31,157 nucleotides of DNA from a virus. The DNA lies in the IMG/VR virus record IMGVR_UViG_3300001392_001719, positions 1-31,157 of that record; one strand, given 5' to 3'. Each line of letters opens with the position of its first letter. Position 1 is the first letter of the stretch. Below the pieces are notes generated by a model. The model was not told where the DNA came from, searched no databases, and saw only the letters and a list, made by a program, of their open reading frames with translations. Shown here in pieces: positions 8,283 to 23,351 of the stretch. The translations under genes and the position numbers were made by a program.

Positions 8283-8620
8283 GCTTAAAGGACATCGCGG
8301 GACAGCTGGCCAGCAACGCGCACATCAAGATCGAATCCGCCCCTCAAGGCATCTCGTACGCAACAAACGGCTTCGTCTTCGCCTGGGGCGCCATGACCTT
8401 CAATCAGATCATGATGCTGATAGGCACGGTGTTCGCCGTTCTCACGTACTTCACAAGCCTGTATTTCCAGCGCAAGCGCGACCAGAGAGAGCAACGGCTG
8501 CTTGAGCACCGGATACAGGCCGAGATGAACGCCGCCGAGCGCAACACCGACAAAACCGAACTGCGCAACTGGTCAGCGGAATCGTCGCCTGATGCCGATA
8601 GCGGCCAGGCCGAGAAATAG
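8279..8620 (+). CDS. Second holin-like or lysis accessory membrane protein (HP1-holin-like)
   Basis: The 113-residue protein has a polar N-terminus, one clear transmembrane span (about 40-62, FNQIMMLIGTVFAVLTYFTSLYF), then a long charged helix rich in Arg, Gln and Glu. This profile fits HP1-type or class III holins, or an inner-membrane spanin subunit. It starts with an ATGA overlap to the 3TM holin. Its last 48 bases are shared, on the other strand, with the end of the PEP-CTERM-like gene, which is unusual for a lysis gene. I favour holin or antiholin over spanin because no overlapping lipoprotein gene is seen. Confidence 0.66.
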   Translation: MSLKDIAGQLASNAHIKIESAPQGISYATNGFVFAWGAMTFNQIMMLIGTVFAVLTYFTSLYFQRKRDQREQRLLEHRIQAEMNAAERNTDKTELRNWSAESSPDADSGQAEK

Positions 8621-9121
8621 CAGGGGCAGGGTGGCTGGCTCCATCACTGAATAGGGTTGACCAATCTGAAAGTCCAGGTCGAGGTAGGATCTTTGAGAGC
8701 CAGGCGGAAGGCTTGCAAGCGGAACGATGAGTGAGCCCCAAAACTCGCCATTTTCGTGATTGTGAAGGTTGCTGGCAAAGTCGCGATCTCCTTCGGGCGC
8801 CCTGATTAGAAATAAGGGGCTGAACACGATTCCTGATGCGGGGTCCGCTATATCGTGGGCCTCCACAACGTGGCCAAAATAATAGTATTCGTTGGACGTT
8901 AGCGGGTTCGTTCCTGCGAAAAGGGCGTCAAAATAAGGTGACGTGAATCTAGCCCGGACCAAAGCGTTCAGCTCAGTATCCGCAACGAAATACCCCGCGC
9001 CATCAATGCTGGTTTCGGGATTGGACGCTCTAAAGGTCATGTCATACCGCAAAAGCGAGGCGTGGCTACTGGCTGAAGCGCTGAGCAATAGCAGCAGAAG
9101 AAATTTTTGTAGATAAGTCAT
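8573..9121 (-). CDS. Exported PEP-CTERM-like protein (reverse-strand moron)
   Basis: The 182-residue product from ATG 9121 has an exact ribosome site (GGAGGT, 4 bases before the start). In-frame codons up to 9169 lack one. Residues 1-21 form a signal peptide (TYLQKFLLLLLLSASASSHA). The C-terminus (159-182) reads V-M-E-P-A-T, a hydrophobic helix and RRRFR, the tripartite layout of PEP-CTERM sorting tails, with Met in place of the first Pro. Hosts with exosortase cut and anchor such proteins at the surface. The middle is a beta-rich extracellular domain without a family match. Reverse orientation in a late operon marks it as a moron, probably active in the lysogen. Confidence 0.72.
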   Translation of the reverse strand: MTYLQKFLLLLLLSASASSHASLLRYDMTFRASNPETSIDGAGYFVADTELNALVRARFTSPYFDALFAGTNPLTSNEYYYFGHVVEAHDIADPASGIVFSPLFLIRAPEGDRDFASNLHNHENGEFWGSLIVPLASLPPGSQRSYLDLDFQIGQPYSVMEPATLPLLFLGLAAIGIRRRFR

Positions 9122-21263: not shown

Positions 21264-22247
21264 ATGGCAAACGCTGAAAATGCAAAGATCCAGTACGAGG
21301 GCGGTCAGAACCAGCAAGCTTTGAGTGCGCTGGGCGATTCTGGCGACGCAACCACTTTTGAATCGGGCGCAGCCCTTTGGTCGCGCCGCACCGGTTTTGA
21401 ACCGGTCATTCGACCTGACGGCCTGATCACTGGCGGCACCATCACCCCGGCAGCATCTGGCGACGACAATGTCGTAGACGTGTCAGCCGGAACGGCTTAC
21501 GTGGGCGGGCAGCTTGTAGCTTTCTCGGCTGCAACGGACGTAACCTGTTCTCGCGCCGTCACCAGCAACACGCACATCGTTCACTCGATCACTGTGGACG
21601 GTTCTGGGACAATCGCCGCAGCAGCCGGCACTGGGTCAACATCATTCAGCGAGACTCGCGCCGCTGCTGGCGGACCTGCGTTGATTGCGGTAACCAAGAT
21701 CGAAATTGGCCAAGTGCGTCTTGCTGGCACGGCGGCGGCCCCTGTCACTGCCGCTGATATCAAGCAGGTCGTGGGCGTTCACCAGGAGCGGTATGACTTC
21801 CCGATCTGGGAGGTGGATTACCGGAATGGCAACGTGGTGTTCAACTCAGCTCTGCCGCTGATTCACACCGCCACGGTGCCAAAGAAAGTCTTTGCCTCCT
21901 ACGCCGAGCCGATCTTTGCGGATGTTCCTCGAGGCACCGACTATGTGCCGGCAGAAACATCGCACAGCACTAGCTCGACTCAGATTTACGGCAGCACCAT
22001 TGGCTCAACAAGCTCCACTCTGAACCAGGGCAGCTTCACCGCCTATCTGAATGACGGCATCAGTGATAGCCTGGTTCGCCTGAAAAACGAGTTCTTGTGG
22101 TTCAAGTTCTTCCCCAACAAGTTCCAGAGCAACTACCGGCTGGACCAGGGCAAGCTTGGCATCGCACGAACGTTCCCTGCCGGCGACGAAATTCAGGCGT
22201 CATGCACCATCTCGCCTGAGTCTGACGGTTCGGACGTGGCCGCATAA
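21264..22247 (+). CDS. Major tail tube protein
   Basis: The 327-residue protein occupies the gpV position. It has a polar N-terminus, an Ala/Gly/Thr-rich beta central region (about 60-180) and a C-terminal half with DFPIWEVDYRNGNVVF, KKVFASYAEPIFADVP and LKNEFLWFKFFPNKFQ. The Ala/Thr/Ser-rich middle may be an inserted surface domain; lambda gpV (246 residues) also carries an extra Ig-like domain, though placed at its C-terminus. Ribosome site: GGAGAG before ATG 21264. Junction TAATG to the chaperone gene. Confidence 0.75.
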   Translation: MANAENAKIQYEGGQNQQALSALGDSGDATTFESGAALWSRRTGFEPVIRPDGLITGGTITPAASGDDNVVDVSAGTAYVGGQLVAFSAATDVTCSRAVTSNTHIVHSITVDGSGTIAAAAGTGSTSFSETRAAAGGPALIAVTKIEIGQVRLAGTAAAPVTAADIKQVVGVHQERYDFPIWEVDYRNGNVVFNSALPLIHTATVPKKVFASYAEPIFADVPRGTDYVPAETSHSTSSTQIYGSTIGSTSSTLNQGSFTAYLNDGISDSLVRLKNEFLWFKFFPNKFQSNYRLDQGKLGIARTFPAGDEIQASCTISPESDGSDVAA

Positions 22248-22717
22248 TGGCTGGCTTCGACCTGAAAGCCTTCCAGAAGGCTCAATTCGTCCCGCGTGAA
22301 ACGGAAGTCACGCTGGATGCATTGGTAGAGGCTGGATTTGGAGACGGCGTTGTAAAAGTGCGCGGCCTGACTGCGCATGAGTTGGCAGAGGCGGAAGAGT
22401 CAGCATCGAAGGGGAGGCTTCTTTCTGATCTGGTTGAGCGCTTGTCTGGGGCGGGCAAAGATAAAGTTGGCGCACTGATGGATGGCATTGGCTACCATCA
22501 GGATGTCCCGGCCTCACTTGCCAAGCGCCTTGAGCATGTGCGGCTAGGGACTGTTCAGCCTGAAATGGATCTGGCGGATATTGCCAAGTTGGCAGAGGTG
22601 TTTCCGATAGAGTTCAGTGTCATGGCGAACAAAATCCTGGAACTGACAGGGAAAGGCCAGCAGGCCCAGGTAAAGCGCAAGCCCTCTGGAGCCAAGCAAG
22701 CATCCAAGCAAGCCTAG
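22247..22717 (+). CDS. Tail assembly chaperone, gpG-like (zero-frame product)
   Basis: This acidic 156-residue protein lies between tube and tape measure, the gpG position. It has the expected helical centre (LTAHELAEAEESASKG, LADIAKLAEVFPIEFSVMANKILEL) and a Lys-rich end (KRKPSGAKQASKQA). A second frame (-1) stays open over its last 150 bases and continues to 22833, the usual sign of a programmed -1 frameshift giving a gpGT fusion. The chaperone binds the tape measure while tube subunits polymerise. Confidence 0.85.
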   Translation: MAGFDLKAFQKAQFVPRETEVTLDALVEAGFGDGVVKVRGLTAHELAEAEESASKGRLLSDLVERLSGAGKDKVGALMDGIGYHQDVPASLAKRLEHVRLGTVQPEMDLADIAKLAEVFPIEFSVMANKILELTGKGQQAQVKRKPSGAKQASKQA

Positions 22718-22833
22718 CCCTTGCGGACAGAAAAGGCCGCTATCTCTATGAGACGCGGCCCGATGTTTTTCCAGAGGGCTATCTGACCGAGGCAGAGATG
22801 AATTTGTGGGGCATGTGGTACAGACGACAATAA
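22564..22833 (+). CDS. Tail chaperone frameshift extension, gpT-like (-1 frame)
   Basis: This frame, -1 to the gpG-like gene, is open from 22564 to TAA at 22831-22833. It has no ATG, GTG or TTG before the last dozen codons, so it can only be reached by a ribosome slip. After the zero-frame stop it encodes LALADRKGRYLYETRPDVF and YLTEAEMNLWGMWYRRQ, a compact domain like the T part of other phage chaperones. The slip probably falls between 22649 and 22717; the best tetramer is A-AAG at 22672-22675. No perfect X-XXY-YYZ heptamer is seen. Confidence 0.75.
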   Translation, partial: NGSGGYCQVGRGVSDRVQCHGEQNPGTDRERPAGPGKAQALWSQASIQASLALADRKGRYLYETRPDVFPEGYLTEAEMNLWGMWYRRQ

Positions 22834-22849: not shown

Positions 22850-22877
22850 TTTAACCACCCCGGCAATGTGCTACGCT
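22850..22877 (+). promoter_or_regulatory. Candidate moron promoter
   Basis: TTTAAC (22850-22855), 16 bases, then TACGCT (22872-22877). The -10 is preceded by TGC, an extended -10 (TGn) that may compensate for the weak hexamer. It lies 17 bases after the chaperone extension ends and 27 bases before the DUF4124 gene. Confidence 0.4.
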
Positions 22878-22904
22878 CATCAGGTATATGACACGGAGGT
22901 AGCT

Positions 22905-23309
22905 ATGCGCCTGATTCTAGTTTTTCTCACCGCTCTATCATTTCCTGCGTTCGCCCAGGTCTACAAATGGACCGACGAAAGCGGCAACGTCCATTTCGGC
23001 AATCAACCGCCGCCAGGTCAACAGGATGAAGTCAGGATTCGGGAGAGCAGTCCCGGATCAATGGCGATCAAGCCAAGCGCATCGGCAGAGCCCGAGGTTC
23101 AGGAAAGCCCCCGAGCAGAGCTGGAAAGCCTTGAGTCCGCAGCACGAAGCAAGGCTTGCGATCTCGCCAAAAGCGAACTAGGCAGCGCTGAGCGGAAATT
23201 GACCTTGGCGCTCAGCATAGATAGGAACAGTCCGATGGTCGATTATCGGCAAAACCAAGTTGACCTTTGGGAGCGACGATCGCGCATTGAGTGTGTCGGC
23301 GCCAAATAG
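22905..23309 (+). CDS. Exported DUF4124 protein (moron between tail genes)
   Basis: The start is ATG 22905, 4 bases after an exact GGAGGT; an in-frame start at 22806 lacks one and overlaps the chaperone end. The 134-residue protein begins with a 17-residue signal peptide (MRLILVFLTALSFPAFA). The DUF4124 hallmark YKWTDESGNVHFGNQPP follows, then a Pro/Ser-rich linker and a charged helical C-terminus with two Cys (KACDLAK, IECVGAK), which may pair. DUF4124 proteins are periplasmic or envelope proteins of gammaproteobacteria with no known function. A chromosomal-type gene within a tail module, flanked by promoter and terminator, is a classic moron. Confidence 0.85.
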   Translation: MRLILVFLTALSFPAFAQVYKWTDESGNVHFGNQPPPGQQDEVRIRESSPGSMAIKPSASAEPEVQESPRAELESLESAARSKACDLAKSELGSAERKLTLALSIDRNSPMVDYRQNQVDLWERRSRIECVGAK

Positions 23310-23327
23310 ATAACCGAATCTCACCAG

Positions 23328-23351
23328 ACCCTGCTCCGGCAGGGTTTTTTT
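23328..23351 (+). terminator. Strong intrinsic terminator after the DUF4124 moron
   Basis: ACCCTGC (23328-23334) pairs exactly with GCAGGGT (23339-23345) around TCCG, followed by seven T residues. It ends the moron transcript and lies directly in front of the tape measure ribosome site, so late transcription must pass through it. Confidence 0.88.

What the first reader, a model, noticed from the sequence alone, without database searches (positions are those of the whole stretch)
22850..23351. Complete moron unit inserted between tail chaperone and tape measure
An exported DUF4124 protein is flanked by an extended -10 type promoter and a strong intrinsic terminator. The gpG/GT to tape measure order is among the most conserved in tailed phages, so a three-part insertion here is unusual. 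The window now has two envelope-directed cargo genes (this and the PEP-CTERM-like gene).
Basis: partly seen in the sequence, partly recalled or inferred. Interest (0 to 1): 0.62.

Follow-up and report, generated by a model that had tools for sequence, protein, structure and literature searches.

The report
Swappable envelope-gene cassette before tape measure
In a marine (Marinobacter-type) phage a small self-contained gene for a secreted protein sits between two tail genes; it is a real "moron" in a slot already known from phage HK97, but here the protein's tail end, or the whole gene, is swapped between close relatives inside a fixed promoter/terminator frame, and the same promoter and gene also occur in phage-satellite-like elements.

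Summary
Between the tail chaperone (22247-22717, plus a -1-frame T-like ORF to 22833) and the tape measure gene lies an extended -10 (22869-22877), a 134-aa exported DUF4124 gene (22905-23309) and a terminator (23326-23351). A comparison of 45 relatives shows it is an insertion: 22 have an empty junction, TMP following T directly. DUF4124 entered once, at the base of a 23-member clade; 20 of those keep it, two carry other exported cargo and one has lost it. So it is old and lineage-conserved, not a recent oddity. The site is not unusual either: HK97 gp15 and ES18 gp18-20 are annotated morons there. New details: the protein has two invariant cysteines in a predicted helical hairpin; its C-terminal half is exchanged between near-identical phages (97% tail tube, 13% C-terminus); one relative (L016) has another cargo gene between the same promoter and terminator. 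The same 26-bp terminator/RBS block precedes unrelated tape measure genes elsewhere, behind mostly exported cargo (25/33 against 23/245 background ORFs). Four ~16-kb tape-measure-carrying satellite-like elements in Marinobacter carry DUF4124 too, two with the same promoter. Best functional guess: lysogen-expressed envelope protein, probably superinfection exclusion; untested.

The parts
22247..22717 (+). Tail assembly chaperone (gpG-like), left flank of the slot
   Evidence: No Pfam/PHROG hit; assigned by position between tail tube and TMP and by homology along the relatives' tail modules
22717..22833 (+). T-like ORF in the -1 frame (SLADRKGRYLYETRPDVFPEGYLTEAEMNLWGMWYRRQ*); its stop marks the left edge of the insertion
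   Evidence: Sequence; homologous reading in relatives; in empty sites TMP begins at or just after this stop
22869..22877 (+). Extended -10 promoter core TGCTACGCT (no convincing -35)
   Evidence: TGNTANNNT in 20/21 homologous spacers, 1.3 expected; also upstream of the different cargo in L016 and of satellite DUF4124 copies L176/L177. Not tested experimentally
22895..22899 (+). Shine-Dalgarno GGAGG
   Evidence: Sequence, conserved in nearly all relatives
22905..23309 (+). DUF4124 cargo gene, 134 aa: signal peptide (residues 1-17), DUF4124 domain (8-59), disordered linker, C-terminal helical hairpin (about 69-130) with invariant C85 and C130
   Evidence: Pfam E 1.1e-12; 28-sequence alignment; AlphaFold2 pLDDT 91-98 over the hairpin; dN/dS 0.06-0.18 among relatives
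23326..23351 (+). Intrinsic terminator (stem-loop plus T7), abutting the TMP translation start
   Evidence: dG -18.6, z -3.25; compensatory changes across 13 versions; the same 26-bp block in 59 viral-contig stretches
23352..26111 (+). Tape measure protein, right flank; likely start GTG 23367
   Evidence: PF10145 E 4.8e-34, phrog_4211 E 6e-56; SD+ATGGC/GTGGC conserved
8573..9121 (-). Second probable envelope moron: signal peptide plus PEP-CTERM-like C-terminus (VMEPATLPLLFLGLAAIGIRRRFR), outside the slot
   Evidence: Sequence; 96% DNA identity to Marinobacter phage PS3

Best explanation
The feature is a moron cassette: an autonomous transcription unit (extended -10 promoter, one gene, intrinsic terminator) in the gap between the tail chaperone and the tape measure gene of a PS3-like Marinobacter siphophage lineage. 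Shown by sequence: it is an insertion relative to empty sites; it was acquired once in this lineage and then kept; its promoter and terminator flanks stay fixed while the C-terminal half, or the whole gene, is exchanged. Inferred: the host polymerase transcribes it from the prophage, and late transcription passes the terminator by antitermination or read-through. The protein is exported to the periplasm and folds as a small DUF4124 domain tethered by a flexible linker to a two-helix hairpin stapled by C85-C130. Most likely it changes the lysogen's envelope so that competing phages are excluded, either at a receptor/pilus system or at genome entry. The constant export/anchor part plus variable hairpin fits a target-binding module under diversifying exchange.
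For: Insertion polarity and single gain: 45-taxon tail-tube tree, junction DNA. Unit parts conserved: promoter, terminator covariation. Cargo swap inside the same promoter/terminator: L016; reverse-strand exported cargo: L018. Promoter plus gene in satellite-like elements (L176, L177). Export signal and two-cysteine hairpin. Purifying selection. Cargo behind the same terminator block is exported far above background, 25/33 vs 23/245, p 8e-16. [quoted passage not shown] prophage proteins that block type IV pili as exclusion factors (PMC11436027).
Against: No expression or phenotype data. The C-terminal type does not follow the adjacent TMP once tail-tube relatedness is removed (partial r 0.05, p 0.30), so TMP-matched exclusion gets no support. 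HK97 gp15 has no sequence similarity and is a predicted membrane protein. GC content equals the flanks (0.556 vs 0.55-0.58), so there is no compositional sign of foreign origin. The promoter lacks a -35. No PDB fold match (best E 0.27).
Confidence: 0.68

Rival explanations
1. A recent, unusual insertion specific to this phage.
For: Empty sites exist, including a Marinobacter prophage (L114, M. bryozoorum).
Against: 20 of 23 clade members carry it, including PS3 at 46-48% TMP identity; GC equals the flanks; HK97 and ES18 have morons in the same gap.
Confidence: 0.04
2. A tail-morphogenesis accessory gene: a third chaperone or a minor tail protein that happens to have its own promoter.
For: Constant position next to TMP and long retention in the lineage; satellite-like elements carry both TMP and DUF4124.
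Against: Signal peptide and periplasm-type cysteine pair; absent from the 22 outgroup phages with homologous tails, replaced by unrelated exported genes in L016/L018; C-terminus independent of TMP.
Confidence: 0.08
3. A type IV pilus (or type II secretion) modulator of the TfpC kind: it keeps or blocks pili and so changes motility, attachment or phage adsorption. A specific form of the best explanation.
For: [quoted passage not shown] a similar layout is predicted here.
Against: TfpC's authors warn that most DUF4124 proteins cannot be called orthologues; the TfpC sequence was not compared here; Marinobacter carries 7-9 DUF4124 genes per genome in the two checked, so the domain alone does not give the function.
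Confidence: 0.25
4. A host-benefit gene (envelope stress, adhesion, metal or peptidoglycan binding) with no role against phages.
For: Cellular homologues with the same signal peptide-DUF4124-two-cysteine layout occur in Marinobacter chromosomes, e.g. beside ilvB-like and clpB-like genes (neighbours named by eye).
Against: Closest relatives of the phage copies lie in prophages and satellite-like elements rather than at that locus; C-terminal exchange among near-identical phages is more typical of conflict.
Confidence: 0.2

Closest known systems
HK97 gp15 moron (AF069529 8203-8391)
   Same: Same gap between frameshift tail chaperone and TMP; own terminator whose T-run directly abuts an ATG before the TMP start; envelope-directed product.
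   Different: 62-aa predicted inner-membrane protein with no sequence similarity; the cargo here is a soluble exported DUF4124 protein with exchangeable C-terminus.
Phage ES18 gp18-gp20 ('possible moron')
   Same: Genes with putative terminators directly upstream of the TMP.
   Different: Unrelated cargo; several genes in a row.
TfpC and cellular DUF4124 (PF13511) proteins
   Same: Signal peptide, DUF4124 domain, extended linker, helical C-terminus.
   Different: Phage-encoded, on a mobile cassette; orthology to TfpC not tested.
TP-J34 Ltp and P22 SieA superinfection exclusion proteins
   Same: Prophage-expressed envelope proteins; the Ltp block is overcome by changes in TMP (PMC10883804).
   Different: Different proteins (a lipoprotein and an inner-membrane protein); relation to this cargo not tested.
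Marinobacter phage vB_MalS-PS3 (MF959999)
   Same: Carries the same unit in the same place (ATN93336.1, 137 aa) and the PEP-CTERM-like gene.
   Different: Not recognised in the description of that phage: DUF4124 and moron are not mentioned.
PLE satellites of Vibrio cholerae (satellite-encoded TMP)
   Same: Satellite that carries its own TMP (PMC12987554), like the Marinobacter elements noticed here.
   Different: PLE TMP is 20% identical to the helper's, with TAC and hub genes alongside; the Marinobacter elements' TMP is 41-70% identical to this window's TMP and sits with a DUF4124 gene.

Membership tests
Moron (autonomous insertion in a phage late operon) | Gene absent between the same flanking genes in relatives | tested here: met
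   22 of 45 relatives have an empty junction
Moron (autonomous insertion in a phage late operon) | Own promoter | tested here: inconclusive
   Conserved extended -10 in 20/21, no -35; activity not tested
Moron (autonomous insertion in a phage late operon) | Own terminator | tested here: met
   z -3.25; compensatory stem changes
Moron (autonomous insertion in a phage late operon) | Expressed from the repressed prophage | not testable with these tools
   Needs lysogen RNA-seq
Moron (autonomous insertion in a phage late operon) | Composition different from flanks (typical, not obligatory) | tested here: not met
   GC 0.556 vs 0.556/0.550 for TAC/TMP
DUF4124 (PF13511) | HMM score over the curated cut-off | tested here: met
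   48.4 vs 22 bits
HK97 gp15 superinfection exclusion family | Sequence homology to gp15 | tested here: not met
   No BLASTP alignment at E<=100; filed as 'same slot', not as a member
TfpC (type IV pilus factor) | Orthology to TfpC | not tested
   TfpC sequence not fetched; only domain and layout compared from PMC7593972
Superinfection exclusion proteins | Blocks superinfecting phage when expressed alone | not testable with these tools
   Experiment needed

The most novel reading that the evidence does not exclude
The gap in front of the tape measure gene is a widespread, standardised cargo slot: a constant terminator/ribosome-binding block and lineage-specific promoters frame interchangeable envelope-protein genes in many unrelated siphoviruses. 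In Marinobacter, ~16-kb TMP-carrying phage satellites exploit the same helper lineage and carry the same promoter plus DUF4124 gene, so that a satellite and its likely helper share both a tape measure gene and an exclusion-type envelope gene.
Probability: 0.3. Interest if true: 0.72.

Novelty: new variant of a known kind. Interest (0 to 1): 0.5.

Why it matters
Morons are usually described one at a time. Here empty, occupied, swapped and reverse-strand states of one slot can be placed on a tree, and regulatory flanks stay fixed while cargo changes. That gives a simple way to mine phage genomes for envelope-acting exclusion genes: read whatever lies between a terminator and the TMP start. It also offers a family (DUF4124 with a variable two-cysteine hairpin) in which target specificity could be mapped by comparing natural C-terminal alleles in otherwise near-identical phages. 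The satellite-like elements add a possible further case of satellite-encoded tape measures, with an apparent helper lineage that has a cultured member (PS3 on M. algicola DG893).

Tried and rejected
Recent, window-specific insertion: rejected by the tree. Unusual site: rejected by HK97 and ES18. Sigma-70 promoter with a -35: not found; only the extended -10 is supported. Compositional foreignness: none. Solved-structure relatives by sequence: none; fold search on the model: only generic helical hairpins, best E 0.27. TMP-matched exclusion specificity: no correlation of C-terminal type with TMP. First covariation count was off by one column because of the structure string; repeated with the right register. 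A PHROG call with a wrong reading frame failed and was repeated. The original HK97 gp15 paper is not held; its content is cited through PMC10883804. Pfam on the replacement cargo of L016/L018 gave nothing above cut-offs.

Full report
WHAT IS THERE. The window is a 31-kb IMG/VR virus record of a lambda-like siphophage related to Marinobacter phage vB_MalS-PS3 (PMC8424206). Gene order here: major capsid E, neck genes, tail tube (phrog_30644), tail chaperone (22247-22717) with a -1-frame T-like ORF to 22833, DUF4124 gene (22905-23309), tape measure (phrog_4211, PF10145). The DUF4124 gene has an extended -10, an SD GGAGG and a terminator whose T-run ends at the base before ATG 23352.

PROTEIN. 134 aa; signal peptide with AFA|Q; PF13511 at E 1.1e-12. 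In 28 homologues from phages and integrated elements, ten positions are invariant: M1, Y20, W22, D24, G27, H30, P35, V43 and two cysteines, C85 and C130. AlphaFold2 (27 sequences) gives a beta-hairpin at 20-32, a disordered linker (pLDDT below 50 at 44-54) and a confident helical hairpin, helices 69-105 and 110-130, pLDDT 91-98. The two cysteines are about equally far from the turn, as expected for a disulfide staple at the base (inference; coordinates were not inspected). dN/dS between close pairs is 0.06-0.18, so the frame is a real, constrained gene.

PROMOTER AND TERMINATOR. The generic scan does not distinguish either from chance in this window alone. Conservation does. TGNTANNNT occurs in 20 of 21 spacers, 1.3 expected after shuffling, mostly at -36 to -39 from the start codon; no -35 at 15-19 nt is convincing. 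The terminator folds at z -3.25; over 13 versions 93% of pair cells form, and 9 cells show changes on both sides, reached by 0 of 500 shuffles. These sequences are related, so the counts are not independent events.

INSERTION HISTORY. Tail-tube and TMP searches of viral contigs and bacterial genomes gave about 60 relatives. In many the junction is empty, with TMP (ATGGCTGA...) beginning at or just after the T stop, for example L114 (M. bryozoorum), L026-L029, L033, L036, L042, L044, L110. On a 45-taxon tail-tube tree, DUF4124 needs four changes: most simply one gain at the base of a 23-taxon clade (support 91/88), then two replacements (L016, L018) and one loss (L114). The 22 taxa outside are empty except one with other cargo.

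CASSETTE BEHAVIOUR. (a) Window and L002/L011 are near-identical phages (tail tube 97%, TMP 95%), yet DNA identity falls in two places: the middle of the chaperone gene and the DUF4124 C-terminal half (29-47%, with gaps), while the DUF4124 N-terminal region and the terminator/TMP start stay at about 78-92%. The C-terminal halves are 13% identical. At least four C-terminal types exist. (b) L016 (tail tube 91%) has a different 156-aa membrane-anchored protein between the same promoter (TTGTGCTACGCTCATTCAGGTAAATGACAAGGAG) and the same terminator. (c) L018 has an exported gene on the opposite strand. (d) L020, L022 and L064 hold extra genes, in L064 an ISL3 transposase. C-terminal identity does not track TMP identity after removing tail-tube relatedness (partial r 0.05, p 0.30).

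IS THE PLACE UNUSUAL? No. HK97's record labels gp15 'moron product' between gp13/14 and TMP gp16, with a terminator at 8398-8422; its T-run also runs straight into an ATG just before the TMP start. ES18's record labels gp18-20 'possible moron' before TMP gp21. The exact 26-bp block CCGGCNGGGTTTTTTTATGCCCGGAG occurs in 59 viral-contig stretches, mostly in front of tape measures of several unrelated families (phrog_1107, _24, _1538) that match phages of Escherichia, Klebsiella, Salmonella and Pseudomonas. A few instead precede other genes. The gene behind the block looks exported in 25 of 33 non-redundant cases against 23 of 245 other ORFs in the same contigs (p 8e-16), by a simple hydrophobicity/lipobox rule applied to alternative starts. 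That rule is crude and some cargo families are related, so the p-value overstates independence; the direction is clear.

SATELLITE-LIKE ELEMENTS. Among 124 Marinobacter genomes, the nine best hits to the phage DUF4124 protein (E 3e-15 or better) are three prophages with the gene in this slot, four tRNA-linked elements, one unrelated prophage and the M. bryozoorum prophage region, which has an empty slot but a DUF4124 gene elsewhere. The four elements (G012, G025, G051, G113) are about 15.6-16.4 kb between tRNA 3'-end direct repeats (50, 17, 18 and 16 bp). They encode an integrase, replication proteins (primase or DnaB in the two tested), a TMP 41-70% identical to the window's, and DUF4124 in the opposite orientation. 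No tail tube, chaperone, capsid or terminase was found by homology to this phage or among the ORFs tested. Two copies (L176, L177) keep the moron promoter block TGTGCTACGCTGA.ACAAA.TGTTACA.GGA. Satellite-encoded TMP was reported for PLEs in 2026, with further putative cases in that paper (PMC12987554). Excision, packaging and helper dependence are not shown here.

HOW IT MOST LIKELY WORKS. Shown: autonomous unit by sequence, insertion, retention with C-terminal exchange, export signal. Inferred: lysogen expression; disulfide; antitermination past the terminator in late transcription; action in the envelope against competing phages. The exclusion reading rests on HK97 gp15 in the same slot and on the enrichment of exported cargo; a type IV pilus variant rests on TfpC, a DUF4124 protein needed to maintain pili (PMC7593972). 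I put the moron anatomy at about 0.9, exclusion or receptor/pilus modification at about 0.5.

VERDICT. Observation confirmed; interpretation partly supported. Kind known (HK97 gp15-type moron slot); variant new (DUF4124 cargo, exchangeable C-terminus inside fixed flanks, shared promoter and gene with TMP-carrying satellite-like elements).

Noticed in passing
L185+L178 (G025:C3 ~46.4-62.5k), L184+L177 (G012:C22 ~40.8-57.3k), L183+L176 (G051:C1 ~1623.6-1639.2k), L182+L174 (G113:C1 ~3278.5-3294.5k): Four ~16-kb tRNA-integrated satellite-like elements in Marinobacter with integrase, replication genes, a tape measure protein 41-70% identical to the window's, and a DUF4124 gene; no capsid or terminase seen.
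   Followed up: partly
L220-L277: A 26-bp terminator/RBS block identical to the one here precedes unrelated tape measures in dozens of phage contigs, usually directly behind small lipoprotein or exported genes.
   Followed up: partly
window 8573-9121 (-): PEP-CTERM-like exported gene is 96% DNA-identical to the copy in phage PS3 although the tail proteins are only ~48% identical: a recently exchanged second moron; its upstream region also ends in ACACGGAGGT.
   Followed up: partly
window 22350-22600: The middle of the tail chaperone gene is also replaced between near-identical phages (48-59% DNA identity inside ~80-90% flanks), a second exchange patch next to the cargo slot.
   Followed up: no
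window 22640-22833: T-like ORF lies in the -1 frame after the chaperone, but no canonical slippery heptamer was seen; mode of T expression unclear.
   Followed up: no
L179 6095-6559 (-), G001:C39: The M. bryozoorum prophage has an empty TAC-TMP slot but a DUF4124 gene about 27 kb away on the same contig.
   Followed up: partly
L064 7558-11175: Slot enlarged to 3.6 kb with DUF4124, DUF2442 and an ISL3-family transposase.
   Followed up: no
L180, L181: A chromosomal DUF4124 gene beside ilvB-like and clpB-like genes in Marinobacter has the same signal peptide-DUF4124-two-cysteine layout: a possible cellular source.
   Followed up: no
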